Virus record (IMG/VR): IMGVR_UViG_3300033273_000219
Coordinates: 1 to 51,572 of that record
Source of the DNA: a virus
Strand: one strand, 5' to 3'
Length of the DNA stretch: 51,572 nucleotides
This document shows positions 13,162 to 30,438 of this stretch, piece by piece. A model generated the notes under the pieces. That model did not search any database. It was not told where the DNA came from and saw only the letters and a list, made by a program, of their open reading frames with translations. Every line of letters begins with the position of its first letter. The first letter of the stretch is position 1. The position numbers and the translations under genes were made by a program.

Positions 13162-16100
13162 ATGGGTCTTAGTCGCTTAGATAATTTCCTCAAGAATAGT
13201 AAAGGTGATATCCTTTACGTCGATCCTTCTAGTATTGACTCGACGGATAGTATTGAAAATCAGGGTAATTCCCTTGTTAGACCCTTCAAGACTATTCAAA
13301 GAGCACTCTTAGAAGCAGCGAGATTCTCTTATCAGAAGGGTCTGGATAACGATAGATTCAGTAGAACTACAATCATCGTTTATCCTGGTGAGCACGTCAT
13401 TGATAATAGACCTGGATGGATTCCAATTCATGATAACCCATTAACTGGTAATAACTGGTTAACACGTAGTGGATCTACTTCAAATGCTTTAGATCAGTTT
13501 ACATTAGATGCAAACTTTGATATTGATGATCCAGAGAACGATCTTTATAAGATGAACTCCGTCTACGGTGGTGTAATTATCCCCCGTGGTACATCTATTG
13601 TTGGTATGGACCTTCGTAAGACGAAGATCCGTCCGATGTTCGTTCCTGATCCTGCAGATGCTGATATTAAGCAAACTTGCTTGTTCCGTGTAACTGGTAC
13701 TTGTTACTTCTATCAGTTCACATTTTTTGATGCCAATCCAAACTCATCAGTCTTTAAAGATTATGGACTGACAAAGTACGTTCCTAACTATTCTCACCAC
13801 AAAGTTACTTGTTTTGAGTATGCTGATGGTGTAAACAATGTTGGATTTAATGATAGTTTCTTAAATTACACCTCCGAGAGAACTGACCTCGATATTTACT
13901 ACGAGAAGATTGGTCTCACCTTTGGACCTTCTAGTGGAAGAGATATTTCTCCAGACTTCCCAAGCACAGCACTTGATATTCAAACCAAGATTGACGAATT
14001 TAGAATCGTTGGATCTAAGGGTGAGAATGTTGGTATTAACAGCATCAAAGCAGGTGATGGTATTAACTCTAGCACCACCATTGAAGTAGAGCTGACAGAA
14101 GCACTTGGTGGTCTTGATGTAGATACTCCAATTAGAATTGAGGGTGTACCTACTGGTGGATATAATGGATCCTTCGTAATCAGTGAGGTTCAAGGACCTA
14201 CTAAGATTAACTATGAGGTATCCACTCCTCCGTCAAATGCACTGCCATCTATTGTTGCGGGTGCTCCAACACTGAATATTGTTGTTGACTCTGTAACTTC
14301 TGCATCCCCATACATCTTTAACTGCTCACTCCGTTCTGTATACGGTATGTGTGGTCTGCACGCTGATGGTAGCAAGGCAGATGGATTCAAGTCCATGGTT
14401 GTTGCCCAGTTCACTGGTATTGGACTTCAAAAGGATGATTCTGCATTTGTAAAATATAATGCAATCTCTGGTGTATACGAAGATTCTACTGCAGTAAGTA
14501 ACTTACATACAAATACTTCTGCAGTATACAAACCAGACTACGAGAACTTCCACATCAAAGCATCGAATGATGCATTCTTGCAGTTGGTGTCTGTGTTCGC
14601 TATTGGATATGCGAACCATTTTGTTGCGGAGTCTGGTGGTGACCACTCAATTACAAACTCTAACTCTAACTTTGGTGCAAGGGCACTTGTATGTTCTGGA
14701 TTTAGAAATAATGCATTCCCTAGAGATGATACTGGATATATTACTCATATCATCCCACCTCAAAAAATCAGTGGTGACGAGGTAACAATTGAATTCGCAT
14801 CGATTGATGTTCAAAAGACTATTGATGCCGCTAACGATAATAGACTCTATCTCTACAATGAGATCAATCAGAACGTTCCTCCAAAATCTGTACTTGAAGG
14901 ATATAGAATTGGTGCAAAAGTTGATGATAAACTGAAGGTTATCATCAATGAGAACAATGTACCTCAAACAAAGACTGCTAAAATTATTATGCCAGACACC
15001 CAAGGAACGGGTGTTTATGAAGTAACTTCTAAGAAGTTATCTACTGTTGGTAGAACTTCTATTGGTATTAATAGTATTACCTCTAACATCTTTACCCTGA
15101 CTCAGAGTCACCAGTTTAAGTCTGGTGAATCTTTACGTGTCCTTAGTGATGATGGTGAACTTCCAGATGGTCTGGATCACAATAGAGTTTATTATGCTAT
15201 TACTGCTGGTATTAACACTGACCAGATTAAATTAGCACAAACTCTGAATGATACTATTAGTGCATCTGCTGTTACTGTAAACAGTAAGGGTGGTATTCTT
15301 CAGATTGAATCTAGAGTATCTGATAAGAAGTCTGGTGATATTGGTCACCCAGTTCAGTACGATACTGCTATTGGGCAATGGTATATTACTGTTAATGATA
15401 ATAATGAGATCTACAACACTGTTGTAGGGCTTGGAACAACTTCTCTTGGTGCAGCAACACCAAAAACCTTCATCAGCAGAACTCCAGACAATAGAGGTCT
15501 TGATGATGGACTCTATAAGGTAAGATATGTTGTACCAAAGGATTCTACAGTCCTTGGTAGACCACCTGAAGACTCCTTTGTCATGCAGGAATCTAGTACT
15601 ACTGTTGGATTTACCAATAATGAAGTTGCTAAGTTTAAGAATACAACTCCAGTAGTTCTTTCCAATACGTCTGAGATCAGAAACCCAAGATTCATCTCTG
15701 GAACTGATTGGGATGCTATTGTTGGTATTGCTACGATTAAAACTGAGATTCCACACGACTTGTCTGTAGGATCTAAAGTTGAGATCAAGAATATTGTATC
15801 TACTGCTAATACAACTGGACTTGGTAATACTGGATTCAATGGTGTCTTTGAGGTCACTGCAACTCCAGATAGAAAGTCATTTAGTGTTGGTCTCACTACT
15901 AATCCTGGTCTATTTGACAACAACATTAACCTTAGAACTGTAGATCTTCCTAGATTTGAGCGTAAAGAATTCAACACCACGCTGTTTGTTTACAGAAAGG
16001 AAGAGATACAAGAGTATATTCCCAATGCAAAGGACGGTGTTTATCACTTGACCCTTGTTGCCGCAGATTCCCAACCACAGGTTGCGCCATTCCAAAATCT

Positions 16101-19184: not shown

Positions 19185-20330
19185 ATGGTATTTAAGGAAT
19201 TGCTTCGAGTCTATGAATGTTATGAAAACAAAGTAGATGAGAAGACGAAAGTGTATTTACAAGGTTTTGGAACCGTAGACAATCCTCCAGATGGTCTTCC
19301 TCTTATGGAAGACGTAGTTAAAAAGTACAACTCTGGAGAGATTGCTGAGGGATCCACTGTCATATGTTCTGGTAGAGTAGGTGATCTTTGGAGTGATCCT
19401 ACTTACAACCGTATTGATGAACTTCGATATGGTAATCAGAAACGTCACATCGAAAGTCGTGGTGGATTCTCTCATGATGCAGCAGATACTCTGTCTGCAT
19501 ATTGCCGACCCGAACTCAGGGTCGTACTGACTAAGGGAAACAATCGTGCATCTAAGCGATATGCTTGTGGACGTAATACTGAGGACAGAGTTGTTATCTC
19601 TTTGAAACTCCATCGCAAAAACATCTCACATGCAGAGATGATCCGTATTGAATCTCTTGATCACAATACTGATTGTAATTATCGTACTAATCAAAGCGGT
19701 GATGATAAGTTTAAGTCTGCGTATTATGCTGAAGAAGAGTGGGCAGTAAATCTATACAAATATCTTGAACCATTTTCTATTGGTATCGCGGGAACTCTTG
19801 AAAATGCTAAGTTTGTTTGTCCCTCACATTCTTATCTCAGCACGTCAATTCGCCTTGCTGGAAAAGCATACACAACTAAGTATCTCACTGCATTTACGAA
19901 ATGGGATTGTGCTAAGGAAGTTCAGGGGAATGCTACTGTTGCAGGTTCTTTGTTCTTAAAGACTTTCCACACTTATATTGACGATGTGGATAAGAAGAAT
20001 GATATTGATTCATTCTCTGAAATGATGAAGTGGTTCTTTACTGAATATGGTCCTGCTGCTCAAGCATTTGACCCTGACGCAAGGAACCTTCAGCAATCTG
20101 ATATTGTTCAAGGTAATGGTGTTTACAAGGGTAATGAACCTGCTGTCGCACGTTTTGTTTTCCTTTATAATGATTTCTGTCGTATCAAACGATTGAAGTT
20201 TAATGGAACTCACAAAACTGCCATTCCATTTGAAGGATCTGATAGCACTGCTTGGAATAAGTTTCTTGCAGATTCAAATCCTTTGATGAAACCAGCATTG
20301 GGTGGGCTTGCGACCACTAAGTTTTTCTGA
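19185..20330 (+). CDS. ParB-like protein of the helicase/methyltransferase module
   Basis: 381 residues. The start is fixed by a perfect AGGAGG at 19174-19179, 5 nt before the ATG. Residues about 56-135 follow the order of ParB/sulfiredoxin-fold domains: a strand, YNRIDELR at 74-81, a helix, GGFSHDAADTL, then RPELRVVLTKGNNRASKRYACG where KGNNR stands in for the GxRR phosphate-binding box. The rest is helical and unrecognised. ParB-like domains bind or cut DNA or serve as nucleotide-dependent clamps in plasmids, phages and defence systems. The gene has its own promoter and terminators on both sides and precedes a helicase-methyltransferase, so a DNA-recognition or regulatory partner is a reasonable inference. 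The ParB assignment is by pattern only. Confidence 0.6.
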   Translation: MVFKELLRVYECYENKVDEKTKVYLQGFGTVDNPPDGLPLMEDVVKKYNSGEIAEGSTVICSGRVGDLWSDPTYNRIDELRYGNQKRHIESRGGFSHDAADTLSAYCRPELRVVLTKGNNRASKRYACGRNTEDRVVISLKLHRKNISHAEMIRIESLDHNTDCNYRTNQSGDDKFKSAYYAEEEWAVNLYKYLEPFSIGIAGTLENAKFVCPSHSYLSTSIRLAGKAYTTKYLTAFTKWDCAKEVQGNATVAGSLFLKTFHTYIDDVDKKNDIDSFSEMMKWFFTEYGPAAQAFDPDARNLQQSDIVQGNGVYKGNEPAVARFVFLYNDFCRIKRLKFNGTHKTAIPFEGSDSTAWNKFLADSNPLMKPALGGLATTKFF

Positions 20331-20351
20331 ACCAATTCTATAAGTGGCACG

Positions 20352-20375
20352 GGGGGGCATTGCCCCCCTTTTTTT
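20352..20375 (+). terminator. Intrinsic terminator after the ParB-like gene
   Basis: Stem GGGGGGC/GCCCCCC with a 3-nt loop and seven T. The U-run ends at the first base before the next ORF. Confidence 0.92.
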
Positions 20376-23300
20376 ATGGTGTATAATGACTGTGTTCTAA
20401 ATCATTTGCCTGTGACTACTTCTGTTCTTGAAAAGCAAACAGAGTTTGACCTAAGTGGTGGTAAGATTAATACTTGGATTTATTTGCTAATTAACTTGGA
20501 CACTAAAGCGTTCTTTTTTGGACAAACTATTGATTCTAGGAAAGAAAAGCGGCATAATGATCCAGAGTATACAAAACTCATTGGATATTGGAATCTTTTG
20601 GGTCAAAAACATACAACTTATTGGTTTGGAATTTCTGCAACTGGATCTGGTTGTGATAAAAAAGGTCATAAAGAACTTAAATTGTTTCCAAATTGTCGTA
20701 CAAATCCTGGTAGGGGTTCAAACGAATGCTTTATCCTCACTGGGTATTCTGTAGATCAAATTGTACAAACTTGTACTCTTATTGTTCGTAAATTGTTTGA
20801 TGACGTTTTTGTTGAACCTGCAAAAGAACTCAATCTTATGCATTTTCAAGAAAAATTTCTTGTAAAAATTAAATCTGCATGGGAAATTTGGAAAGAGTTT
20901 CTCCTGAACGCTAAATGTCGTTCTGGGAAATGTATCATGACACTCAGTCATGTCGTAAGTGCTAATTATAAGTTGACTCTTCTTTGTTGTCGGACAACTT
21001 CTCCAGAAGAAGGTTGGATTGATGATCAAGAATATTTTCCATCTGTTAAACTTATTAATGTTCAAGACAGTAAATGGGAAAAGGATCTTGAGTTTTGGAT
21101 GGAACAGGATGGTGTAAATATTGTTCTTTGGGGAACGGTTCAAAGTATTTCTAATCGTATTGAATCAATTTGTAACTATAAAATTGACTTTATTGCACTA
21201 GATGAGGCACACGTTGGTGGTAGGGCAGAGCAATTTACAACTTTGCGTGAAAAACTCAATGCTGCCAATGGTGAGACAGTTAAACTTCTTTTAATCACTG
21301 GCACAGCAGATAAACTGTCTCCTGATTTTAATAATGAGAATAGTTTTGTATATTCGTATTGGCATGAGCAATTGGATGTTCGTAGGGGACTTTTTGAAAA
21401 ACCTCGTCCTAAAATGAGGATTCATTTTGCTAAGTATGAATGTGAAGAATATAAAAAGATTTTTGGTGATGATCCAGATGCCATGAGTAATATTTTTACT
21501 CTGAAAGAAAAGAAAAAAGGAAAAGATTCTGAGTTTCTTTATGATTCTCTTCCTCGTGCTTACGCTGTAAAATTTTATGGACCAGAAACATCTAGACTTC
21601 GACTTAATAATCGTTTGTTCCAAGGTAACTATCAAATGATGGCGATGAAAGGAGTTGGTGAGTGTCATGCCTTTAAAAAAATTGTAGAGTGTTATATTCC
21701 AACTCTTGTGGTTACTGGAGATACTAATGAAGATCAAGATACGATCAATAATTTTTGTGCCCGCAATTCTAAAGCACTTATTCTTACATGTAGTGCTAAT
21801 GTTCTTGGTATGACTTGCAAATACATTGATACTGTTATCAATTGTCGTGGAGGAGAATCAAAAGAGTTTTGGGAGCAATTTTCTTTTCGTGGAGGATCTG
21901 CAGATCATGATTGGGATGTTATTGATTTTGATGCAGAACGTGGACTTCGTGTTATTTCCGAATCCTATCAAAAAGCAACTGATATTGAACCAGAATTGGC
22001 ACAATATGAAATGGTAGACTTTGTTGATAGTATTAATGATTGGATGAATGGGTTTATCCAATTAGATCAGAATAAGATTGATGAAATTTTGTGTACAATT
22101 TGTGATAATACAAATTCTAGTTTTGCTAATATTGTAAGTAGACTTGATCTTAATGATGTTGATTTTTCCGATTTTGCTTTGGAAACAAATCTAATCGATG
22201 AGATTGATAACATCCAACTTAATACTAATAATGTGGGTGTTAATAATAAAAGTTGTGAATCCAGGCAAAAAGAAAATAAAGAAAAATCGGACAATCCAGA
22301 AACACAACGGGTAAAGACGGTTAAGGCACTTTTAGAGTCTATTCCTCTTGTTATGACTTATCTTATTTCTGAAGACATTAAAGTGTGTACAATCAACTCT
22401 ATTATTGAAACTGAAGTTTATAAAAATATTACTGGCGATCATTATAAAATTCTTGAGAAAGTTATTGCCAAAAATCCTAGTGGTGAGAATGCAATCAATG
22501 GCAAAATCCTGATGCTTAGTTCTTCTATAAAAATGCAGCTTAAAGAGTCTAAGGCAAAAACATTAGATAAGTACAGTGTGTCTTCACAAATGCAAAAGCA
22601 TATTCCCACAGATCTTTTGGATTCTATGCTTGATGATTGTAAAGATTTATCTAAAATTTATATGTTTGGGGATCCCAGTGGTTCTCACATTGCTCGTCTT
22701 CTTGAACGTGGTCTGGATTCTAGCAATCTCACCGTGTGGGAGAGTTGCGATGCTCACCGTAATCGTGTAAAATATATTAGTGATGAAGTAAATGTTGTAG
22801 ATACTAATCCTAATATGAAGTTCACTGCCATTCTTGCCAACCCCCCATACAACGACCCCACTAAGAAGGCGAAGAACAATAAACTTTGGACTAAAATTGT
22901 TGAACAACACCTTGAGTTGCTTGCTCCTGGTGGAGATATGTGTGAGGTGACTCCTGCATCTGTGCTTGGTAACACTGGTAAGGGTAAGAAGTTCCTCCAA
23001 CTCTTCTCTACGGTTTATAATCTCAAACTCATTGACTACACTGCTGGTGATTACTTCACTGAAGGTGTTGCTATCTGCCGTTGGCATCTTGTGAATGAAC
23101 CTTATCAGGGCAAGACTGTTGTCATCACTCACGATGGTTCCTTTGCTTGGGATTTGCGTGATGGTCTGCCTCTGGTTGGAGATGCTGCACTTAAGCATTC
23201 TATTCTCAACAAGATTGCCAACTCAAACCATCCTCGGATCCCCCTGAAGATGGGTCAGGATATTGCTGCTGAGGACTACACTCCTAATGGCAAGTATGAG

Positions 23301-23660
23301 ATCTATAAGTCTGCAGATAAAGTGGGGCGTACTGATGTTGTTCCTACCACTGGTGATGTTCTGAAGTTTATTGTTCCCTTCTCATCCACTTACAAAAAGA
23401 GGTTTATCTCTAATGGATATGTTGGTATGCTTAATTGCTGGTGCCCTATTACTTCGCAAGAAGAAGGGAATCGTCTTAGTGCGATCTTTGATAATCCGAC
23501 TATCAAGTTTTTTGTGGACAATTATAAAAAGACTGCAGGATTTACTCCTGCTATTAAAAATGCGGAAGTACCTGACATCACGGACTATCAGAATCTATCT
23601 GACCAATTTGGTTTTACCAGCGACGAGGTAGAATATTTGGAGCGTTATAATGCCATCTAA
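20376..23660 (+). CDS. Single-chain nuclease/helicase/N6-adenine methyltransferase-like protein
   Basis: 1094 residues as an ORF. Residues about 31-60 resemble a GIY-YIG nuclease (WIYLLINLDTKAFFFGQT, then R and H), though degenerate. About 178-500 is an SF2 helicase: Walker A AKCRSGKC near 179-186, DEAH at 276-279, TGTAD at 308-312, and a C-terminal helicase stretch ending EQFSFRGGS. About 720-960 is a class I methyltransferase with FGDPSGS at 764-770 and the N6-adenine motif NPPY at 822-825. The tail may be a target-recognition part. This order recalls single-polypeptide type I/ISP and Eco57I-like restriction-modification enzymes. The ATG at 20376 overlaps the -10 element, so TTG at 20406 or GTG at 20412 may be the real start. 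Overlaps the next gene by 11 nt. Confidence 0.72.
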   Translation: MVYNDCVLNHLPVTTSVLEKQTEFDLSGGKINTWIYLLINLDTKAFFFGQTIDSRKEKRHNDPEYTKLIGYWNLLGQKHTTYWFGISATGSGCDKKGHKELKLFPNCRTNPGRGSNECFILTGYSVDQIVQTCTLIVRKLFDDVFVEPAKELNLMHFQEKFLVKIKSAWEIWKEFLLNAKCRSGKCIMTLSHVVSANYKLTLLCCRTTSPEEGWIDDQEYFPSVKLINVQDSKWEKDLEFWMEQDGVNIVLWGTVQSISNRIESICNYKIDFIALDEAHVGGRAEQFTTLREKLNAANGETVKLLLITGTADKLSPDFNNENSFVYSYWHEQLDVRRGLFEKPRPKMRIHFAKYECEEYKKIFGDDPDAMSNIFTLKEKKKGKDSEFLYDSLPRAYAVKFYGPETSRLRLNNRLFQGNYQMMAMKGVGECHAFKKIVECYIPTLVVTGDTNEDQDTINNFCARNSKALILTCSANVLGMTCKYIDTVINCRGGESKEFWEQFSFRGGSADHDWDVIDFDAERGLRVISESYQKATDIEPELAQYEMVDFVDSINDWMNGFIQLDQNKIDEILCTICDNTNSSFANIVSRLDLNDVDFSDFALETNLIDEIDNIQLNTNNVGVNNKSCESRQKENKEKSDNPETQRVKTVKALLESIPLVMTYLISEDIKVCTINSIIETEVYKNITGDHYKILEKVIAKNPSGENAINGKILMLSSSIKMQLKESKAKTLDKYSVSSQMQKHIPTDLLDSMLDDCKDLSKIYMFGDPSGSHIARLLERGLDSSNLTVWESCDAHRNRVKYISDEVNVVDTNPNMKFTAILANPPYNDPTKKAKNNKLWTKIVEQHLELLAPGGDMCEVTPASVLGNTGKGKKFLQLFSTVYNLKLIDYTAGDYFTEGVAICRWHLVNEPYQGKTVVITHDGSFAWDLRDGLPLVGDAALKHSILNKIANSNHPRIPLKMGQDIAAEDYTPNGKYEIYKSADKVGRTDVVPTTGDVLKFIVPFSSTYKKRFISNGYVGMLNCWCPITSQEEGNRLSAIFDNPTIKFFVDNYKKTAGFTPAIKNAEVPDITDYQNLSDQFGFTSDEVEYLERYNAI
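20382..20387 (+). promoter_or_regulatory. -10 element downstream of the terminator
   Basis: TATAAT preceded by ATGGTG. TTGCCC at 20360-20365, inside the terminator stem, could be a -35 at 16 nt spacing (4 of 6 matches). The same GGTGTATAAT string follows the terminator at 24072. Confidence 0.55.
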
Positions 23661-24066
23661 GAACAATCACAACAAACTTCATGGGTCTACTCTTGATCGC
23701 TCTGATGAGAGGATCAAACAGACCCAAGAGGTTTTCACTCCTCCTGATTTGATCAACCAGATGATTCAGGAGATTCCAATTGAGAACTTGAAGAATCCAA
23801 ACTCCAGGTTTATGGATAACTGTGCTGGTGATGGTAATTTCATTGTCTGTCTTTATGAAGAATTGAAGAAGTGCCATAGTGAACAGCATGTGATTGATAA
23901 TATGTTGTATGCTGTTGAACTGATGGAAGACAATCATAAAGAGATGTGTAGGAGACTTGACGTTCCTACGAATCATCCACACTATGTCTGTGCAGATGCT
24001 CTTACATATCACTATCGATTCGATGGTACAGATGGACCAGTGACTCTTGACCAATTCTTAAATTGA
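23650..24066 (+). CDS. Truncated N6-adenine methyltransferase-like protein without catalytic motif
   Basis: 138 residues. It begins like the methylase subunit of type I/Eco57I systems: QTQEVFTPPDLINQMI at about 24-39, then the SAM-binding motif MDNCAGDGNF at about 55-64 and the acidic motif II region (YAVELMEDN). It stops before any NPPY-type motif, so it could bind SAM but not transfer a methyl group alone. It overlaps the large helicase-methyltransferase gene by 11 nt and a terminator follows 5 nt later, so the short length is not a window artefact. It could be a partner subunit, a SAM sensor or a decayed gene. Confidence 0.65.
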   Translation: MPSKNNHNKLHGSTLDRSDERIKQTQEVFTPPDLINQMIQEIPIENLKNPNSRFMDNCAGDGNFIVCLYEELKKCHSEQHVIDNMLYAVELMEDNHKEMCRRLDVPTNHPHYVCADALTYHYRFDGTDGPVTLDQFLN

Positions 24067-24071
24067 CACAT

Positions 24072-24094
24072 AGACCCCTGCTAGGGGTCTTTTT
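24072..24094 (+). terminator. Intrinsic terminator of the methyltransferase operon
   Basis: Perfect 8-bp stem AGACCCCT/AGGGGTCT with a 3-nt loop and a run of five T. Confidence 0.9.
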
Positions 24095-24098
24095 GGTG

Positions 24099-24104
24099 TA
24101 TAAT
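24099..24104 (+). promoter_or_regulatory. -10 element of the second helicase gene
   Basis: TATAAT within GGTGTATAAT, 4 nt after the terminator U-run. The expected RNA start is about 6 nt before the ATG at 24117, so the mRNA would be nearly leaderless. A TTGACA at 24063 is 30 nt away, too far to serve as its -35. Confidence 0.55.
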
Positions 24105-24116
24105 ATTTCTATCGCC

Positions 24117-25352
24117 ATGACACCCATGCAACTTCGCCCTCACCAGTCAAAGGCACTTGATGTCATGACCCAGTGGTCTAACGGCATCATTGTTGTTCCC
24201 ACTGGTGGGGGCAAGACTTTTATTGCCATCTCTGACGCTAAGCGTGAGCTTGCTACCCCTGGTCGCAAGACTATTGTGGTGGTTGCTCCTCGCCTGCTGC
24301 TGGCACAGCAGTTGTCTGCCGAGTTTACTGAGCATATCACTAACGCTGCTGTTCTCCATGTCCACTCTGGCAGTGGATCGCATCACACAACAACCAACCC
24401 TGAAGAGATTCGGTTGTGGCAGGAGTATACCCCTGGTCATTTGTTAATATTTACTACATATCATTCCCTGCATCGTATCCAAGAGTCTAAAATTGATGTA
24501 GATGTAGTTTACTTTGATGAAGCGCACAACTCAATCAAGAAGAACTTCTTTGGTCCTACCAGGTTTATCTCTGCTGGTGCTCGCCGCAGTTACTTCTTTA
24601 CTGCTACTCCTAAGTACACTGCCACTTATCGCAAGTATGGCATGAATGATCCCATCTATGGTGGAATCATCTACAATGTGCCTGCTACTGAGTTGGTAGA
24701 GAATGGATCTATCCTCCCCCCTAAGATCAATGCTATTCCTATTGCTGGTCACAGGGAGAAGGGAGAGGATGCTGCACAGGGAGACTGTGATACTCTCCTA
24801 GATACTTTGAAGTATGAAGACTGCATGGATAAGGTGCTGATTGCAGCACCTAATACAAAGGTCATGATGCGTATGCTTGCAACCACAGACTTCATGTCTG
24901 AGGTTCGTGCTTTAGGTTATGACCTGCTCTGGATCACCAGCAAGCATGGTGCCTTCCACAATGACCATAAGGTTACTCGTGAGCACTTCTTCAACCTTGT
25001 TCGCGCTTTTGGTGCTGACCCTGATAAGAAGTTTGTTGTTCTCCACTACTCTATTCTGAGTGAGGGTATCTCTGTTCCTGGTCTGACTTCTCTTGTTCTC
25101 ATGCGTCAGATGAACGTCATTGAGATGTGTCAGTCTGTTGGACGTGTTATTCGTCTGCACCTGGATGACATTCAAGGTATCAAACAGGGCACTCTCATCC
25201 CTGGTGATACCAAGCAATACTCTAAACCATTCGGTCTGGTTCACGTTCCTGTTTACAGCAACGTTGGAATCTCCACAGTCAAGCGACTTGAGAAGGTCGT
25301 CAACACTGTATTTGTACAGGGTCAGCCCGCTATCGCCACTATCAAACGATGA
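24117..25352 (+). CDS. SF2 (ResIII/DEAH-type) helicase
   Basis: 411 residues from the ATG at 24117; a longer frame opens at 24063 but would run through the terminator and promoter. Motif I PTGGGKT at 28-34, motif II DEAH at 134-137, motif III TATP at 162-165, motif VI QSVGRVIR near 340. This is a compact two-domain SF2 helicase of the kind found as restriction subunits and repair helicases. T4 UvsW is also SF2, so a repair or recombination role cannot be excluded. Base composition is more GC-rich than the large gene upstream, which suggests a different recent history. Overlaps the next start by 4 nt. Confidence 0.8.
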   Translation: MTPMQLRPHQSKALDVMTQWSNGIIVVPTGGGKTFIAISDAKRELATPGRKTIVVVAPRLLLAQQLSAEFTEHITNAAVLHVHSGSGSHHTTTNPEEIRLWQEYTPGHLLIFTTYHSLHRIQESKIDVDVVYFDEAHNSIKKNFFGPTRFISAGARRSYFFTATPKYTATYRKYGMNDPIYGGIIYNVPATELVENGSILPPKINAIPIAGHREKGEDAAQGDCDTLLDTLKYEDCMDKVLIAAPNTKVMMRMLATTDFMSEVRALGYDLLWITSKHGAFHNDHKVTREHFFNLVRAFGADPDKKFVVLHYSILSEGISVPGLTSLVLMRQMNVIEMCQSVGRVIRLHLDDIQGIKQGTLIPGDTKQYSKPFGLVHVPVYSNVGISTVKRLEKVVNTVFVQGQPAIATIKR

Positions 25353-25783
25353 TTCAATATACTTACCATAAGAAGCAATACTTATTTGCCACGAACATCA
25401 GTTGGTTAGATGTTCAGAAGCAGATTGACTTGGAGAAGGAGAATGAGACTTACAGGGCAATTAGTGATGATACTGACCTGTGTATTGACTGTGGTTGTAT
25501 CCCTGGATTCATGCAGAATATTTACAGTAAGTTTTTAAAAGAGCATGGATATGAAGCAATGCATATGTATACCTCTCGTAAGGTAGGTGCAGAGACTCTG
25601 GGTAGACACAATGATGATCAAGATGTTCTCATTGTGCAGTCAAGGGGTAGGATGACATACAAATTTGACGATGATAATGTGGTAACATTGTACCCAGGTG
25701 ATGGATTATATATTCCTGCCTGGGTATACCATAACCCAATCACTATTGAACCACGAATTACCCTAAGTTTGAGCAGAGGATGA
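25349..25783 (+). CDS. Cupin/JmjC-like Fe(II) oxygenase
   Basis: 144 residues. A cupin core is visible: GRHNDDQDVLIVQSRG with His87 and Asp89 or Asp90, then LYPGDGLYIPAWVYHNP with His128, and Arg136 on the last strand. That is the metal-binding and 2OG-binding pattern of small JmjC-like hydroxylases. Cys-rich CIDCGC at 45-50 is unusual. ATGA overlaps join it to the genes on both sides. Substrate unknown. Confidence 0.65.
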   Translation: MIQYTYHKKQYLFATNISWLDVQKQIDLEKENETYRAISDDTDLCIDCGCIPGFMQNIYSKFLKEHGYEAMHMYTSRKVGAETLGRHNDDQDVLIVQSRGRMTYKFDDDNVVTLYPGDGLYIPAWVYHNPITIEPRITLSLSRG

Positions 25784-26007
25784 CCACTGACAAAGAACTA
25801 AAAGAAATTTACAATTTTTACAAGGATTGTGATGAGGGATTTGTGACCAGGGACGGTTATGCTGCTGTCCCACTTATGGGTTCAAAATCCCTTGTAGTAG
25901 TGTATAATGGAAAGCAACTAAAGGTGTGTAAGACCGAGAAGTCTGCTCATACCTTTATCAAAAAACATCGCACTCAAGTCAAAAAAGGAACTGTTTTTGT
26001 ATCATGA
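25780..26007 (+). CDS. Small hypothetical protein
   Basis: 75 residues, beta-rich centre (SKSLVVVYNGKQLKVCKT) and a basic C terminus. Overlaps both neighbours by 4 nt, so it belongs to one coupled transcript. Family not recognised. Confidence 0.6.
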   Translation: MTTDKELKEIYNFYKDCDEGFVTRDGYAAVPLMGSKSLVVVYNGKQLKVCKTEKSAHTFIKKHRTQVKKGTVFVS

Positions 26008-26225
26008 TGAACGCTGATCCACATCCAGACACCCTGGTGACAATCACATGTGACAAGGAAGGTCTCAAGACAATGATCCAGGCTGCTATTGCTGCTATTC
26101 AGCAGGCAGATAACTGGAACTTTGGTGATGAGTATGATCTGGATCTTACACCATATCACGATATGCGAGATTCTCTGATTAAAAAGTATGTGGAGGTGTA
26201 TGGTGACGAAGATATCACGATCTGA
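26004..26225 (+). CDS. Small hypothetical protein
   Basis: 73 residues with a helical Ala/Ile-rich middle (MIQAAIAAIQQA) and an acidic second half. Overlaps the previous stop and carries the ribosome site of the next gene near its end. Family not recognised. Confidence 0.55.
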   Translation: MMNADPHPDTLVTITCDKEGLKTMIQAAIAAIQQADNWNFGDEYDLDLTPYHDMRDSLIKKYVEVYGDEDITI

Positions 26226-26400
26226 GTTAGTACATCTTCAACTACAGGCAATGCTCAGGGAGAATAAGTTCCCTAGTAGTGAGATTATGTACTGTGGTGA
26301 GAGAAATGGTGAACACTGGTATTTGTTTGGTGGTGAGCATGAAGTACCAGTGTCTCAGATTGTAGACATTAATCCAGTAGATGAAGATCAAGAAGTTTGA
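26200..26400 (+). CDS. Small hypothetical protein
   Basis: 66 residues. GGAGG at 26192-26196 fits either the ATG at 26200 or the GTG at 26203, the latter with better spacing. Contains a beta segment MYCGERNGEHWYLFGGEHEV. Overlaps both neighbours. Family not recognised. Confidence 0.55.
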   Translation: MVTKISRSELVHLQLQAMLRENKFPSSEIMYCGERNGEHWYLFGGEHEVPVSQIVDINPVDEDQEV

Positions 26401-26872
26401 AGTCGATGAAAAAGTAACAGAGTATTTTACTTTGTTATTGAAGGTTTGTATGGCAAATCCTGAAGTAATTGACTATAAACAGAGCTCTCTATCTCCAAGT
26501 TGCTTTGCTACTTTAAACTTACTGGATTTTAAGATGCCTGAAAAGTTTTATAACTATACTGGCAGATTACTAAGAAAGTCTGAAGAAGCTACTGGTGAGA
26601 TATTAAGATACCATTACATGCATATGGTAGACTACACTAATGGTGGTATAATGTCAGTACATTCACACAAACACAACGAGGACTATAGTTTTATACTGTA
26701 TCTTAACGACTGCTCTGACGGGCATACTGTTCTTCATCTAGAGAATCAGTATAGAGTATCTCCAAAAAAGGGTACTGTTCTATTATTCTCCTCGTTAATT
26801 CCACACTCGTCTGAATACTCAAAAAGTAAACAGGTTTTTGTGGGTGGACTCAAAGTTACAAAGGAGATTTAA
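26381..26872 (+). CDS. Putative 2OG-Fe(II) oxygenase
   Basis: 163 residues. Beta-core motifs of the 2OG oxygenase fold: MSVHSHKHNEDYSFILYL with candidate iron ligands His96/His98 and Glu100, and PKKGTVLLFSSLIPHSSEY with His142. The usual 2OG-binding Arg after the distal His appears as Lys150 (SKSKQVFVGGLKV). The N-terminal 60 residues are helical. First of the oxygenases of the island. Substrate unknown. Confidence 0.55.
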   Translation: MKIKKFEVDEKVTEYFTLLLKVCMANPEVIDYKQSSLSPSCFATLNLLDFKMPEKFYNYTGRLLRKSEEATGEILRYHYMHMVDYTNGGIMSVHSHKHNEDYSFILYLNDCSDGHTVLHLENQYRVSPKKGTVLLFSSLIPHSSEYSKSKQVFVGGLKVTKEI

Positions 26873-27064
26873 ATGGATTGGGAAAACACAACAAAACAAG
26901 AGAAGCGTAAGGATGCATTCTACATCTTTTACGAGAGTGTGCTTAAGCCCGACCATGAGTTGCGTCAAGATGCTCATGAGCAGAAGTGCTATCATGAACT
27001 TTTAGAATGGCGTGCAGAAATTATTGAGTACCTTGATCGTCGAAGGAATGAAGAATTTTATTGA
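26873..27064 (+). CDS. Small helical protein
   Basis: 63 residues, almost wholly helical and charged (KQEKRKDAFYIFYESV, WRAEIIEYLDRRR). Starts directly at the stop of the previous gene and overlaps the next oxygenase by 17 nt. Family not recognised; may be an accessory to its oxygenase neighbours. Confidence 0.55.
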   Translation: MDWENTTKQEKRKDAFYIFYESVLKPDHELRQDAHEQKCYHELLEWRAEIIEYLDRRRNEEFY

Positions 27065-27578
27065 GAAGTTTGCTATTCCCTTTTATCAAACAAAGATTGA
27101 GAATTGGGAAGAGAAGAAGCAAAAACTCCTGGACATCTATGATAAGTTTGCTCAGGACAATATGGATGAGGGTGAGCAAAATTCTGATTTTCAACAGGGT
27201 AACTATCATTTCTTGATTGAAACTATTCTGTTTGAAGAGATCAGAAAAGGTGCTAGGGAAATGACCAGCTATAAAAGAGCACCAAGAGTTGGTAATGCCT
27301 GGTTCCAAACTTATGACATAGCACATTCTCATGCTATTCATAATCATGGACTTGGGAACTTGAGCCTGGTTTGCTACATAATGTATGATCCTGAGCATCA
27401 CAGACCAACCACATTTGTATGTCCTTTTATGAGTCTTGAAGATGGTAATGTTTTAGAGTGGGAACCAGAAGGTGTTGAGGAAGGGACTTTAATCATGTTC
27501 CCATCTGGGTTGGCACACTATGTACCGACTAATCAGTCTGATGTTAGAAGGATGATTTTATCCGCAAATATGCAGTAA
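27048..27578 (+). CDS. 2OG-Fe(II) oxygenase (phage Oxy_5-like)
   Basis: 176 residues from the ATG at 27048; a GTG at 27012 would add 12 residues. This is one of the clearest oxygenases here: AIHNHG gives His98 and His100, a strand LSLVCYIMY, then GTLIMFPSGLAHYVP with His157 and Arg167/168 before the final strand MILSANM. The layout fits the phage and marine-bacterial 2OG-FeII_Oxy_5 group of about 180-200 residues. TAATG couples it to the radical SAM gene. Confidence 0.7.
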   Translation: MKNFIEKFAIPFYQTKIENWEEKKQKLLDIYDKFAQDNMDEGEQNSDFQQGNYHFLIETILFEEIRKGAREMTSYKRAPRVGNAWFQTYDIAHSHAIHNHGLGNLSLVCYIMYDPEHHRPTTFVCPFMSLEDGNVLEWEPEGVEEGTLIMFPSGLAHYVPTNQSDVRRMILSANMQ

Positions 27579-28396
27579 TGTTAAAAGTACCTCATGAATT
27601 ACAGTTGCATTTAACTCATTCATGTAATCTTACATGTGAGGGATGTACTCACTATATGAACCAGGGACACTCTGGTAAGGTTAGTTTAGAGACTACCTCT
27701 GAATGGTATGACAACTGGAATAAAAGAGTTTTACCAAAAAGAATTACTTTGATGGGTGGAGAACCAAGTCTTCACCCAGATCTTACTGAGTTTGTATATC
27801 TGACTAGAAGGAAATGGCCAAACTCTTACATTGAGATTGTATCTAACGGATTCTTCCTGCATAGGCATCCTGATTTACCAGTAGCGTTAAAAGAAACTAA
27901 TACAACACTTGCTGTATCTGTTCATGATGATAGTCATCCAGACTATCGTAATAAGTTTGAACCAATCTATAGATTAATGAAGGATTGGATCACTAAAGGT
28001 GCTCCTGTTGAGATGAGACCATCTGTTGTTCATTGGTTGGCACAATACAAGGGGTTTGGTGATAAGATGGAACCCTTTGAGGATAATAATCCTAAAGCAA
28101 GTTGGAAGGCATGTGTATCAAGATTATGTGTGCAACTGCATGAAGGTAAGTTGTGGAAGTGCCCTGCATTGGCATATCTTCCTATGCAAGCAGAGAAGTA
28201 TAATCTATCTGAGAAGTGGGATCCTTATTTAAAATATGTTCCTCTTGAGCATACTTGTGATGATAAAGAATTAAAGGACTTTTTTACAAGGAGAGAGGAA
28301 TCGTTTTGTTCTATGTGTCCTGCTACTGAGCAATATTTTAGTCCATCTAATCCCCTTCTACCTGTGAGTTATTGGAAGAAGAAATATGATACTTGA
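27578..28396 (+). CDS. Radical SAM enzyme A
   Basis: 272 residues. The 4Fe-4S motif CxxxCxxC is at Cys16, Cys20 and Cys23 (HSCNLTCEGC), followed by the SAM-binding GGEP near residue 65. A second Cys set near the C terminus (CVSRLC, KCPALAYL, FCSMCP) may hold an auxiliary cluster as in SPASM proteins. Radical SAM enzymes use a 5'-deoxyadenosyl radical for modification of peptides, sugars or RNA. It sits between oxygenases and has a close paralogue at 31457-32308 sharing long motifs such as GKLWKCPALAYLPMQA. Substrate unknown; the context suggests a tailoring pathway. Confidence 0.85.
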   Translation: MLKVPHELQLHLTHSCNLTCEGCTHYMNQGHSGKVSLETTSEWYDNWNKRVLPKRITLMGGEPSLHPDLTEFVYLTRRKWPNSYIEIVSNGFFLHRHPDLPVALKETNTTLAVSVHDDSHPDYRNKFEPIYRLMKDWITKGAPVEMRPSVVHWLAQYKGFGDKMEPFEDNNPKASWKACVSRLCVQLHEGKLWKCPALAYLPMQAEKYNLSEKWDPYLKYVPLEHTCDDKELKDFFTRREESFCSMCPATEQYFSPSNPLLPVSYWKKKYDT

Positions 28397-29141
28397 TGGT
28401 GAACTTTTAGATCTTTTAGAAAAACTTGCAGCAAAAGCAGGAGTGTCTCCATCTGAACGTTTAGATGAGATCATAAGAGATGAATACTATAGAATTAACA
28501 GGGTAGTTCCTCAGGAAATAACAACAGATCCTTATTGGAAAGATAATAGGGATGTGGAACATTTTGATTTTTGTGGTAATACGATTTACAGAGCATATAA
28601 TATGCTCAGTCGTCACCATATGGATTATCTTTTAGATGATATTGATGATGAACTAAGAACCAGTAGGGATAAATGGGATAGATCTGTAGAAGCGACTAAT
28701 GAACTACCACATAGGAAGTTGATGCACTATACCAGTTGGTATGTGTTCTTTAGTATGGTTAAAAAGCATCTTCATAACTATGCAAGAATAACCAATAATC
28801 CTAGGGTTAAAGAGTATAAGGTTCAGTCCTACTGGGTAAAGAGGATGAAGGGAACGAACCCAGAAGATTATAAGAATGAATTAGATATAAATTATAGGAA
28901 TAGTCACAGTCATGAGAACTTTGACTTAGGAATGATATATTATCTTAATAATCCATCAAGGATGTTTGGCACATTGATTGAGAATAAGGATAGGGAGATC
29001 ATTGTTCCAGGTGATGAGAACTCTTTGCTAATTCATCACTCACACATTAACCATCAACCAGTAATGCCCCCCAAACAAATTGCCAATAAGTATTATAGAT
29101 GTGTTATTGTTGTTGATTTTATGCATCCATCAAAAATATGA
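28386..29141 (+). CDS. Putative 2OG-Fe(II) oxygenase with helical N-terminal part
   Basis: 251 residues, longer than its neighbours. The last 80 residues carry the oxygenase core: NSHSHENFDLGMIYYL with His174/His176, VPGDENSLLIHHSHINHQP with several candidate distal His (217-223), and KYYRCVIVVDF with Arg238. The N-terminal 160 residues are mostly helical and unrecognised. Overlaps the radical SAM gene by 11 nt and the next gene by 4 nt. Confidence 0.6.
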   Translation: MILDGELLDLLEKLAAKAGVSPSERLDEIIRDEYYRINRVVPQEITTDPYWKDNRDVEHFDFCGNTIYRAYNMLSRHHMDYLLDDIDDELRTSRDKWDRSVEATNELPHRKLMHYTSWYVFFSMVKKHLHNYARITNNPRVKEYKVQSYWVKRMKGTNPEDYKNELDINYRNSHSHENFDLGMIYYLNNPSRMFGTLIENKDREIIVPGDENSLLIHHSHINHQPVMPPKQIANKYYRCVIVVDFMHPSKI

Positions 29142-29371
29142 GAGCTTCCGACAGGATTAAATACTTTAGTATAGTATCAAAGATAAACAAGGGTCAGTTT
29201 GATGACATTGCACCAGATGAATATGCCTGGTTGCAGAGTAATCCACATGTCTTGAAGGATATGAATCTAACAAGAAAAAAAGAAGAGATTCTCCAAAGGT
29301 CTGTGGGTTGTCATGGCACTGTTGAAGAGATCCTGTTTTCTTTAGACTTGTCAGATAGAATGTATCGGTGA
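29138..29371 (+). CDS. Small hypothetical protein
   Basis: 77 residues, helical, starting with RASDRIKYFSIVSKI. Overlaps the previous gene by 4 nt. The promoter of the HNH gene begins inside its last codons. Family not recognised. Confidence 0.55.
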   Translation: MRASDRIKYFSIVSKINKGQFDDIAPDEYAWLQSNPHVLKDMNLTRKKEEILQRSVGCHGTVEEILFSLDLSDRMYR

Positions 29372-29377
29372 TATAAT
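29348..29377 (+). promoter_or_regulatory. Sigma70 promoter of the HNH gene
   Basis: TTGTCA at 29348-29353, 18 nt spacing, and TATAAT at 29372-29377 with an extended -10 TG (TGATATAAT). Splits the enzyme island into two transcription units. Confidence 0.7.
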
Positions 29378-29398
29378 GTCCACAATGCCCTTGCAAGT

Positions 29399-29875
29399 AT
29401 GGAACATCTCAAGATACAACCACACCAGACAGTATTAGTTCTTAATTCTAGCTATGAACCAATTAATTTTACTAACTGGAAGAGAGCAGTTGTGTTAGTT
29501 CTAAAAGATAAGGTACAGGTGTTATCCTCAAGAGTTGTTAGATTGTTGAATTATATTAGAATTCCCGTGAGGAGTATTATGCAGAACCGTCCAACTAGAA
29601 GTCAGATTTATAAGAGGGATAAGAATTCTTGTCAGTATTGTGGAGCAACGACTAGACTGACTATTGATCATGTTATTCCAAAGAGTAAGGGTGGACAGGA
29701 TACTTGGGAGAACTTGGTAGTCGCATGTTCTTCATGCAATGTTAAAAAGAGTGATAAATTACTTGAGCAGACTAAACTAAATCTCAGGAAGGAACCAAGA
29801 GCACCATTTAATACAGTTGCTATTGACCTTGCAGAATCCAATGTCCCTGAATGGAGGGAGTACAGTTATACCTAG
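29399..29875 (+). CDS. HNH endonuclease
   Basis: 158 residues. Zinc ribbon CQYC at 78-81 and CSSC at 110-113 frame the HNH core: TIDHVIPKSKGG with Asp90-His91, and WENLVVAC with Asn105. The N-terminal 60 residues (TVLVLNSSYEPINFTNWKRA) match a common cyanobacterial-type HNH protein. Such proteins are often free-standing homing-type or restriction nucleases. There is no sign of an intron here. Confidence 0.85.
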   Translation: MEHLKIQPHQTVLVLNSSYEPINFTNWKRAVVLVLKDKVQVLSSRVVRLLNYIRIPVRSIMQNRPTRSQIYKRDKNSCQYCGATTRLTIDHVIPKSKGGQDTWENLVVACSSCNVKKSDKLLEQTKLNLRKEPRAPFNTVAIDLAESNVPEWREYSYT

Positions 29876-29883
29876 GAGACAGT

Positions 29884-30438
29884 ATGTTTTTTCGTAAATT
29901 GAATGAGAAGTTTGTAATCGATCATTATACCAAAACTGGTAAGAAGATTGAGTATGGATTGGATAGTCCCATAGGTTTTATGGGAATTAAGTATTCATAC
30001 ATCAATACCACTAATGACGAGGATCTTCTGCAGGTAATTCCACGGGAGTATAGATCCCAGTGTACTTTTTCATTGATGGAATTAAATTATCAGATCCCTC
30101 CTCATACTGATAGTGATATTGAGGCAATCATTAACTTCTATATTACTACTGACGATTGTATCACTCAGTTCTACTATCCTCCTGATGATAGTGTTCCTCG
30201 CCAACAGATTGACAATCAGACTGATGGTGCTATATTCCATGAAGGATACTTGAAGAAGGCAGTCAGGTTCATGGCAAAACCTGGCGATGCATATCTTCTG
30301 GACGTATCAAAACCACATTCAGTTATTCCTACTAATCCTGGGATTACAAATCGTAAGTGTATTTGTTTACAGATTCTGCATAAGTCATTTGATGCTGCTG
30401 TAGAGATGCTCAAATCTACTGGTTATATTGATGATTAG
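29884..30438 (+). CDS. 2OG-Fe(II) oxygenase
   Basis: 184 residues. AGGAG at 29874-29878 is 5 nt before the ATG at 29884 and fixes the start. PPHTDSD gives His74 and Asp76; the distal His is 145 in LDVSKPHSV; Arg157 follows in the last strand. The whole facial triad plus Arg is intact, so an active enzyme is likely. Substrate unknown. First of three oxygenase genes in a row. Confidence 0.65.
   Translation: MFFRKLNEKFVIDHYTKTGKKIEYGLDSPIGFMGIKYSYINTTNDEDLLQVIPREYRSQCTFSLMELNYQIPPHTDSDIEAIINFYITTDDCITQFYYPPDDSVPRQQIDNQTDGAIFHEGYLKKAVRFMAKPGDAYLLDVSKPHSVIPTNPGITNRKCICLQILHKSFDAAVEMLKSTGYIDD

What the first reader, a model, noticed from the sequence alone, without database searches (positions are those of the whole stretch)
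19185..25352. Phage-borne helicase/methyltransferase module with restriction-modification-like parts
Sequence: four adjacent genes encode a ParB-like protein, a chain of ~1094 residues joining a GIY-YIG-like region, an SF2 helicase (Walker A, DEAH, TGTAD) and an N6-adenine methyltransferase (NPPY), a truncated methyltransferase-like protein, and a second SF2 helicase. Known: single-chain restriction-modification enzymes of type I/ISP and Eco57I kind join helicase, methylase and nuclease. Inference: this could be a phage weapon against competing phages, a self-protecting DNA modification system, or a DNA-repair machine. The ParB-like partner and the second helicase make the set unlike the standard systems.
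Basis: partly seen in the sequence, partly recalled or inferred. Interest (0 to 1): 0.78.

Follow-up and report, generated by a model that had tools for sequence, protein, structure and literature searches.

The report
Phage two-part DNA methylase with translocase
A cyanobacterial virus carries what looks like its own restriction-modification machine, whose DNA-methylating enzyme is split over two overlapping genes, one holding the catalytic half and the other the cofactor-binding half; the same pair recurs throughout ocean and lake phages, and I found no credible relative in bacterial genomes.

Summary
The genes are real, but the set is three parts, not four. The 1094-residue chain (20376-23660) is a GIY-YIG-like domain, an SF2 translocase, a linker, then an N6-adenine methyltransferase half with NPPY and a recognition region (alpha); its own motif I is a shortened variant (GDPSGSH). 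The 'truncated' 138-residue product (23650-24066, beta) is not debris: it holds canonical motifs X and I-III, never NPPY. All 95 testable of 97 distinct betas have an ORF abutting upstream, 80 with a motif-IV match, usually overlapping by 4-20 nt. Fourteen alphas begin at motif IV, leaving no room for motif I; one (L163, 60% identical, same locus) is the window's core without helicase or pseudo-half. Aeromonas phages fuse alpha and beta, and that model matches beta-class methyltransferases across both halves (Z about 10). In the window, alpha's catalytic half, TRD and beta share one recombination block. In a helicase-seeded scan, beta is present in 39 of 40 testable contigs; the 'ParB-like' gene in 0 of 46. 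The second helicase is the UvsW-like core gene. Mechanism proposed: a split methyltransferase marks phage DNA while the attached translocase-nuclease attacks unmarked DNA. The split is well supported; nuclease activity and biological role are inferred.

The parts
20376..23660 (+). Nuclease-like/translocase/alpha chain, 1094 aa (PHROG 22930 fused to PHROG 3689)
   Evidence: AlphaFold2 mean pLDDT 79; Foldseek best hit LlaBIII
20469..20825 (+). GIY-YIG-like (T5orf172/MUG113 type) N-terminal domain, residues ~32-150; catalytic Glu position is Asp
   Evidence: beta-beta-alpha-beta-alpha-alpha pattern in the model
20826..22055 (+). SF2 helicase-like ATPase/translocase, residues ~151-560
   Evidence: RadD Z 24.9, rmsd 4.2, 328 aligned
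22056..22580 (+). Linker/coupler-like helical region, residues ~561-735
   Evidence: model secondary structure; position as in type ISP enzymes, inferred
22581..22814 (+). Alpha pseudo X-III half, residues ~736-813, variant motif I GDPSGSH (DPSG invariant in 12 homologues)
   Evidence: missing altogether in L163/L168
22815..23135 (+). Alpha catalytic half, motifs IV-VIII, NPPY
   Evidence: purifying selection pN/pS 0.06-0.18 in three comparisons
23136..23657 (+). Presumed target-recognition region and C-terminus of alpha, residues ~921-1094
   Evidence: position; swapped with the catalytic half and beta
23650..24066 (+). Beta subunit, 138 aa: motifs X (EVFTP), I (DNCAGDGNF), II-III; no NPPY (PHROG 4376)
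   Evidence: overlaps the alpha gene by 11 nt
24063..25352 (+). UvsW-like SF2 helicase; core-gene neighbour, not part of the module
   Evidence: profile matches T4 UvsW 2oca E=7.8e-11; in 423 phage records, nearly all cyanophages
19185..20330 (+).
   Evidence: 0 of 46 helicase-seeded contigs; elsewhere in Syn1 and S-CREM1

Best explanation
A phage-encoded, restriction-modification-like system with a split N6-adenine methyltransferase. Alpha gives the catalytic NPPY half and target recognition; beta gives the SAM-binding half (motifs X, I-III) in trans, and together they methylate one sequence in phage DNA. The translocase and GIY-YIG-like nuclease on the same chain act when the site is found unmethylated, as in type ISP enzymes, and so attack host or competitor DNA. 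Shown by sequence and comparison: complementary motif content, strict gene pairing with overlap, alphas with no room for motif I, natural alpha-beta fusion whose model is a beta-class methyltransferase fold, and a shared recombination block. Inferred: physical assembly in the window's phage, methylation and its target, DNA cleavage, and the role in infection. Open: how beta fits an alpha that still keeps a variant X-III half.
For: Motifs: distinct betas carry FTP and DxxAGxGNF-type motifs and none has NPPY. Pairing: of 97 distinct betas, 95 have an abutting upstream ORF (the other 2 are cut by the contig start), 80 of them with a motif-IV match; overlaps mostly 4-20 nt. Independent helicase-seeded test: alpha in 45 of 46 contigs (22 fused, 23 separate), beta in 39 of 40 testable. 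Fourteen alphas begin within 20 residues of motif IV; L163 is 60% (alpha) and 65% (beta) identical to the window at the same tail-uvsW locus, without helicase or X-III. Aeromonas fusion (L090-L093): beta-class enzymes match across both halves (MboIIA Z 10.0, rmsd 3.0, 144 aligned; CcrM Z 9.2, rmsd 3.7, 159 aligned; RsrI Z 8.9, rmsd 4.0, 166 aligned), gamma-class ones mostly only one half at Z about 5-7. Mosaic: 91-99% to L094 over 20451-22600 then about 75%; about 40-70% to L104 there but 93-98% over 22850-24050, then 65-86%; partial r(alpha,beta)=0.60 against r(helicase,beta)=-0.12. Nuclease: conserved GIY-YIG-like residues in 35 domains; other lineages carry a separate PD-(D/E)xK-like cistron instead; KpV477 carries a clear GIY-YIG (LEM-3, E=1.9e-15). 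Whole-chain match to LlaBIII.
Against: The window's alpha keeps a confidently predicted X-III half of its own with invariant DPSG, so it might not need beta for SAM; two other alphas (L079, L081) even have a near-canonical motif I. The catalytic Glu of the GIY-YIG-like domain is Asp throughout, and the window's own domain matches no Pfam GIY-YIG model. Walker A in the window ends GKC instead of GKS/T. The minimal alpha-beta loci without nuclease show that modification alone can be kept. The Aeromonas model is of middling confidence (pLDDT 66, pTM 0.61; alpha part rests on 6 sequences). A metagenome assembly chimera cannot be fully excluded for the mosaic.
Confidence: 0.62

Rival explanations
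1. Pure modification system: alpha-beta methylate phage DNA to escape host restriction; the translocase only helps the methylase move, and the GIY-YIG-like domain is a non-cutting DNA-binding relic.
For: Minimal alpha-beta loci without helicase or nuclease exist (L163, L168, P-SSM2). Catalytic Glu replaced by Asp in all 35 domains. Jumbo phages use methylases against restriction (PMC7824862).
Against: The nuclease position is filled by unrelated-looking domains in different lineages (GIY-YIG-like; PD-(D/E)xK-like cistron with invariant D and QxK; clear GIY-YIG in KpV477), hard to explain without selection for cutting. Tyr, Gly, Asp and Glu are invariant.
Confidence: 0.3
2. Alpha is a complete methyltransferase using its variant motif I; beta is an accessory or regulatory copy that arose by duplication of its X-III half, with a heterodimer in the manner of METTL3-METTL14.
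For: Alpha's X-III region aligns by eye with beta and folds onto the catalytic half with pLDDT about 90; DPSG and VWE are conserved; L079 and L081 alphas keep a near-canonical motif I.
Against: Many alphas lack X-III entirely and still have beta; motif I is short by a residue and lacks the second Gly in the window's subfamily, while beta's is canonical in nearly all.
Confidence: 0.22
3. Recombination or DNA-repair machine: nuclease, helicase and UvsW act together at forks or ends.
For: The second helicase is UvsW-like and adjacent in most loci.
Against: UvsW-like helicase is in 423 phage records, the module's big chain in 35; a methyltransferase with a recognition region is the constant core, and helicase and nuclease are optional.
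Confidence: 0.07
4. Homing-type selfish element: a GIY-YIG endonuclease spreading its cassette among phages.
For: Strong mosaicism at the locus; KpV477 alpha matches a homing-endonuclease PHROG.
Against: The recombining block is alpha's catalytic half plus beta, not the nuclease; a homing enzyme does not need a methyltransferase or translocase.
Confidence: 0.06

Closest known systems
Type ISP restriction-modification enzymes (LlaGI, LlaBIII)
   Same: Nuclease, SF2 ATPase, coupler-like helical region, N6-adenine methyltransferase and recognition region in that order in one chain; best whole-chain fold match.
   Different: GIY-YIG-like instead of Mrr nuclease; canonical SAM-binding half in a second gene; helicase and alpha are separate genes in half of the contigs; phage-borne.
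Beta-class amino-methyltransferases (MboIIA, CcrM, RsrI)
   Same: The Aeromonas alpha-beta fusion matches them across both halves, in the order IV-VIII then X-III.
   Different: Single chains; here the halves are separate overlapping genes in nearly all cases, with recognition region between.
Naturally split cytosine methyltransferases M.AquI and M.EcoHK31I (PMC3404938)
   Same: One methyltransferase made of two polypeptides from adjacent genes, each lacking essential motifs.
   Different: Those are C5-cytosine enzymes split near motifs IX-X; here an N6-adenine-type enzyme is split between SAM-binding and catalytic halves, in permuted order, and tied to a translocase.
Type IIG/Eco57I-like enzymes and CamA
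   Same: Eco57I-type catalytic half; beta matches CamA motifs X and I (E=1.6e-4).
   Different: Single chain, no split.
Chlorovirus-encoded restriction-modification (PMC7019647)
   Same: A virus encoding both methyltransferase and nuclease; proposed to degrade host DNA.
   Different: Simple type II pairs in algal viruses; no translocase and no split.

Membership tests
Type ISP R-M enzyme | Single chain with nuclease, SF2 ATPase, coupler, methyltransferase and TRD (PMC4666363) | tested here: not met
   Canonical motifs X/I lie in a second gene (beta); helicase and alpha separate in 23 of 45 contigs
Type ISP R-M enzyme | Mrr-family nuclease at the N-terminus | tested here: not met
   N-terminus belongs to a family with T5orf172/MUG113 (GIY-YIG) matches, not Mrr
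Type ISP R-M enzyme | SF2 helicase-like ATPase with intact motifs | tested here: met
   K185, DEAH, R505 conserved; RadD Z 24.9, rmsd 4.2, 328 aligned; caveat GKC in the window
Type ISP R-M enzyme | Methylation of one strand; cleavage on collision of two translocating enzymes | not testable with these tools
   needs biochemistry
N6-adenine (amino) DNA methyltransferase | Motif IV N/D-P-P-Y/F/W in an Eco57I-type catalytic half | tested here: met
   NPPY in alpha; Pfam Eco57I 28.7 bits, cut-off 25.3
N6-adenine (amino) DNA methyltransferase | SAM motifs X and I present | tested here: met
   only with beta counted; alpha alone has a shortened variant
Beta-class arrangement | Order IV-VIII, TRD, X-III | tested here: met
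   Aeromonas fusion model, Z 8.9-10.0 across both halves; gene order alpha then beta in the window
Naturally split methyltransferase | Two polypeptides, each without essential motifs, from adjacent genes | tested here: met
   Clear for alphas that begin at motif IV; for the window's alpha a variant X-III half remains
Naturally split methyltransferase | Activity needs both chains | not testable with these tools
   needs expression and methylation assay
GIY-YIG nuclease | Catalytic Tyr, Arg and Glu of the superfamily | tested here: inconclusive
   Tyr and Gly invariant, Arg common, Glu replaced by invariant Asp; 6 of 35 relatives match T5orf172
UvsW helicase (second helicase) | Profile relation to T4 UvsW and core-gene distribution | tested here: met
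   2oca E=7.8e-11; 423 phage records; LlaGI/LlaBIII also match the profile
ParB (19185-20330) | ParB/sulfiredoxin domain match | tested here: inconclusive
   No Pfam ParB match at E<=1; no fold prediction was made

The most novel reading that the evidence does not exclude
A phage-restricted, mix-and-match restriction-modification family: one conserved SAM-binding subunit (beta) completes many interchangeable catalytic/recognition subunits (alpha), which are in turn coupled or fused to different nucleases and translocases, and which lytic phages use to protect their own DNA and destroy unmarked DNA inside the infected cell.
Probability: 0.4. Interest if true: 0.85.

Novelty: new variant of a known kind. 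Interest (0 to 1): 0.72.

Why it matters
It gives a testable function to several PHROG families of unknown function (4376, 22930, 5172, 7683) that recur in cyanophages and many uncultured phages. It would be an N6-adenine-type methyltransferase naturally split between its cofactor and catalytic halves; I know of no described case, and the searches made here did not turn one up. Because alpha's recognition half and beta move as one cassette while nuclease and translocase are exchanged separately, the family is a natural experiment in how restriction enzymes are assembled and change specificity. If the nuclease is active, lytic ocean phages carry restriction systems of their own, which bears on host DNA breakdown and on competition between phages in one cell.

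Tried and rejected
Four-gene unit: rejected, ParB-like gene absent from all 46 relatives and UvsW-like helicase is core. Beta as a truncated pseudogene: rejected by conservation in 97 distinct sequences and dN/dS 0.05-0.12. Direct GIY-YIG match in the window by Pfam models: none; profile of 35 N-termini against PDB: none. Foldseek's tables for the 1094-aa model are filled by helicases and methyltransferases, so the N-terminal fold was not tested by structure. PD-(D/E)xK/Mrr identity of the alternative nuclease cistron rests on invariant D and QxK in 6 sequences and a weak Pfam Mrr_cat match (E=0.12); PDB profile search gave nothing sensible. Scan with the KpV477 small subunit: nothing. PADLOC and NCBIfam: only generic weak matches. 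First alignment for the fusion model mixed alphas into the beta region and was discarded. Literature searches found no description of this system, but only open-access papers are held.

Full report
What the window is. A 51.6-kb virus record of T4-like cyanophage type: the UvsW-like gene, and nearly all named relatives of the genes studied, are from Kyanoviridae and related Synechococcus/Prochlorococcus phages.

Observation. The four ORFs exist. The 1094-aa product is a fusion of PHROG 22930 (E=5.5e-151, residues 35-752) and PHROG 3689, DNA methyltransferase (E=2.5e-35, residues 762-1085); Pfam sees Eco57I above its cut-off. The 138-aa product is PHROG 4376, unknown function (E=2.7e-58). The last gene belongs to PHROG 16, DNA helicase. 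The first gene is PHROG 15918, unknown function; no ParB match was found.

Beta is a half enzyme. In the betas (67 distinct) motif X (EVFTP), motif I (DNxAGxGNF, or DPSCGDGQF in a second group), the acidic motif II (VELMEDN) and a motif III-like stretch are conserved; no beta has NPPY. A profile of 17 betas matches CamA (E=1.6e-4) and M.BseCI at motifs X and I. Window beta against L104 beta: dN/dS 0.05; against L094: 0.12.

Alpha is the other half. NPPY or a near variant is present, but in the window's subfamily motif I is GDPSGSH, one residue short and without the second glycine, although DPSG is invariant in 12 sequences. Fourteen distinct alphas begin within 20 residues of motif IV, so they cannot hold motif I; the longest ORF was always used. 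L163 and L168 are the clearest: at the same locus, between the tail gene and the uvsW-like gene, they have an alpha of about 280 aa that begins MNFTILSNPPY (60% identical to the window's residues 814-1094 in L163) overlapping a beta 65% identical to the window's. Caveats: the window's own pseudo X-III half is predicted to pack normally (pLDDT about 90), and a few distant alphas (L079, L081) have a nearly normal motif I. How beta works beside such alphas is not settled.

Pairing. Seeded with beta, 95 of 97 distinct betas have an ORF abutting upstream (the other two are cut by the contig end), 80 with a motif-IV match; the remainder are mostly truncated ORFs or loci with another gene between, and in three the abutting ORF is an oxygenase. 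Some of the 80 matches were picked up at secondary sites by the loose pattern, though the same proteins are alphas by profile. Seeded with the helicase, an independent test, alpha is next or fused in 45 of 46 contigs and beta present in 39 of 40 testable. Beta is encoded by at least 449 stretches in IMG/VR against 3 weak partial matches in 84,980 bacterial and archaeal species.

Natural fusion and fold. Aeromonas T4-like phages (PX29 and three others, L090-L093) carry one 415-aa chain: an NPPY half first, then a beta-like half 25-34% identical to the betas. Its AlphaFold2 model (pLDDT 66, pTM 0.61) matches beta-class methyltransferases over both halves (MboIIA Z 10.0, rmsd 3.0, 144 aligned; M.BceJIV Z 9.8, rmsd 3.5, 157 aligned; CcrM Z 9.2, rmsd 3.7, 159 aligned), while gamma-class enzymes (TaqI, CamA, EcoKI) match only one half (Z about 5-7). 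Foldseek alone gives no match under E 0.001.

The big chain. The 1094-aa model (pLDDT 79, pTM 0.64) has LlaBIII, a type ISP enzyme, as best Foldseek match (E=1.6e-17, 1349 columns) and LlaGI at rank 4. The helicase part resembles RadD and Snf2-type motors. The N-terminal domain shows the beta-beta-alpha-beta-alpha-alpha order of GIY-YIG domains; in 35 homologous domains Tyr, Gly, Asp and Glu are invariant, and six match T5orf172.

Module exchange. At the equivalent locus other phages have a separate PD-(D/E)xK-like nuclease gene with helicase, alpha and beta (Bellamy gp85-88; ACG-2014f C90 gp51-54; L061, L063, L068, L175), GIY-YIG-like/alpha fusions without helicase (S-SKS1, KpV477), two alphas with one beta (L052, L056, L059, L074), or alpha-beta alone. 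Two strains of the same species ACG-2014f carry different sets beside the same beta.

Mosaic in the window. Against L094 identity is 91-99% over about 20451-22600 and about 75% after; against L104 it is about 40-70% there, 93-98% over about 22850-24050 and 65-86% beyond. The uvsW-like protein is 99% identical to a third relative, L115. Alpha's catalytic half, TRD and beta thus form one exchanged block. Over 16 loci the partial correlation of alpha with beta identity is 0.60, of helicase with beta -0.12. An assembly chimera is unlikely given divergence on every side, but not excluded.

Mechanism and rivals. Best supported: split methyltransferase (about 0.8 for the split itself), with a translocase-nuclease that makes it restriction-like (about 0.55). 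The main rival is modification only, for self-protection. Chloroviruses are a precedent for virus-encoded restriction enzymes that are thought to degrade host DNA (PMC7019647), and R-M systems in jumbo phage genomes have been suggested to serve in conflicts with other phages (PMC7824862); that review also lists circularly permuted phage methylases, single chains as far as described.

Novelty. It is not a type ISP enzyme by the tests made, though it probably works like one. Natural splitting is known for cytosine-5 enzymes (M.AquI, M.EcoHK31I; PMC3404938). I found no account of an N6-adenine-type enzyme split this way, within the limits of an open-access library.

Noticed in passing
window 20451-25352: Three-way mosaic: nuclease/helicase nearest L094, alpha catalytic half plus beta nearest L104, uvsW-like gene nearest L115 (99% aa).
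   Followed up: yes
L052, L056, L059, L074: Two different alpha genes in tandem before a single beta, suggesting that one beta may serve several alphas.
   Followed up: partly
L002 (S-CAM7) 14117-15561 and 21462-22477: Two complete alpha-beta pairs of different type in one phage genome.
   Followed up: no
L010 (ACG-2014f C90) and L003 (ACG-2014f C16): Strains of one phage species carry different nuclease/helicase/alpha sets beside the same beta: an allelic swap.
   Followed up: partly
window 20376-23660, residue 186; L109 alpha: Walker A ends GKC in the window and its 90% relative instead of GKS; L109 has NAPY in place of NPPY. Possible loss of activity in single members.
   Followed up: no
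L006 (P-SSM2) 5538-6926: A 462-aa protein beside the alpha-beta pair has a weak C-terminal match to the DpnI winged-helix domain (E=0.014); its N-terminus reads ParB-like by eye.
   Followed up: no
L192, L195, L198: Betas preceded by a 2OG-oxygenase-like gene instead of an alpha; their alpha, if any, lies elsewhere.
   Followed up: no
window 25349-30438: Downstream run of cupin/2OG-Fe(II) oxygenase-like genes (25349, 26381, 27012), a CxxxCxxC radical-SAM-like protein (27578-28396) and an HNH-like protein (29399-29875), similar in order in L094 and L109.
   Followed up: no
L138 3194-3484: A contig binned as Clostridiales encodes a weak (31%) beta relative; possibly a phage or a full methyltransferase.
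   Followed up: no
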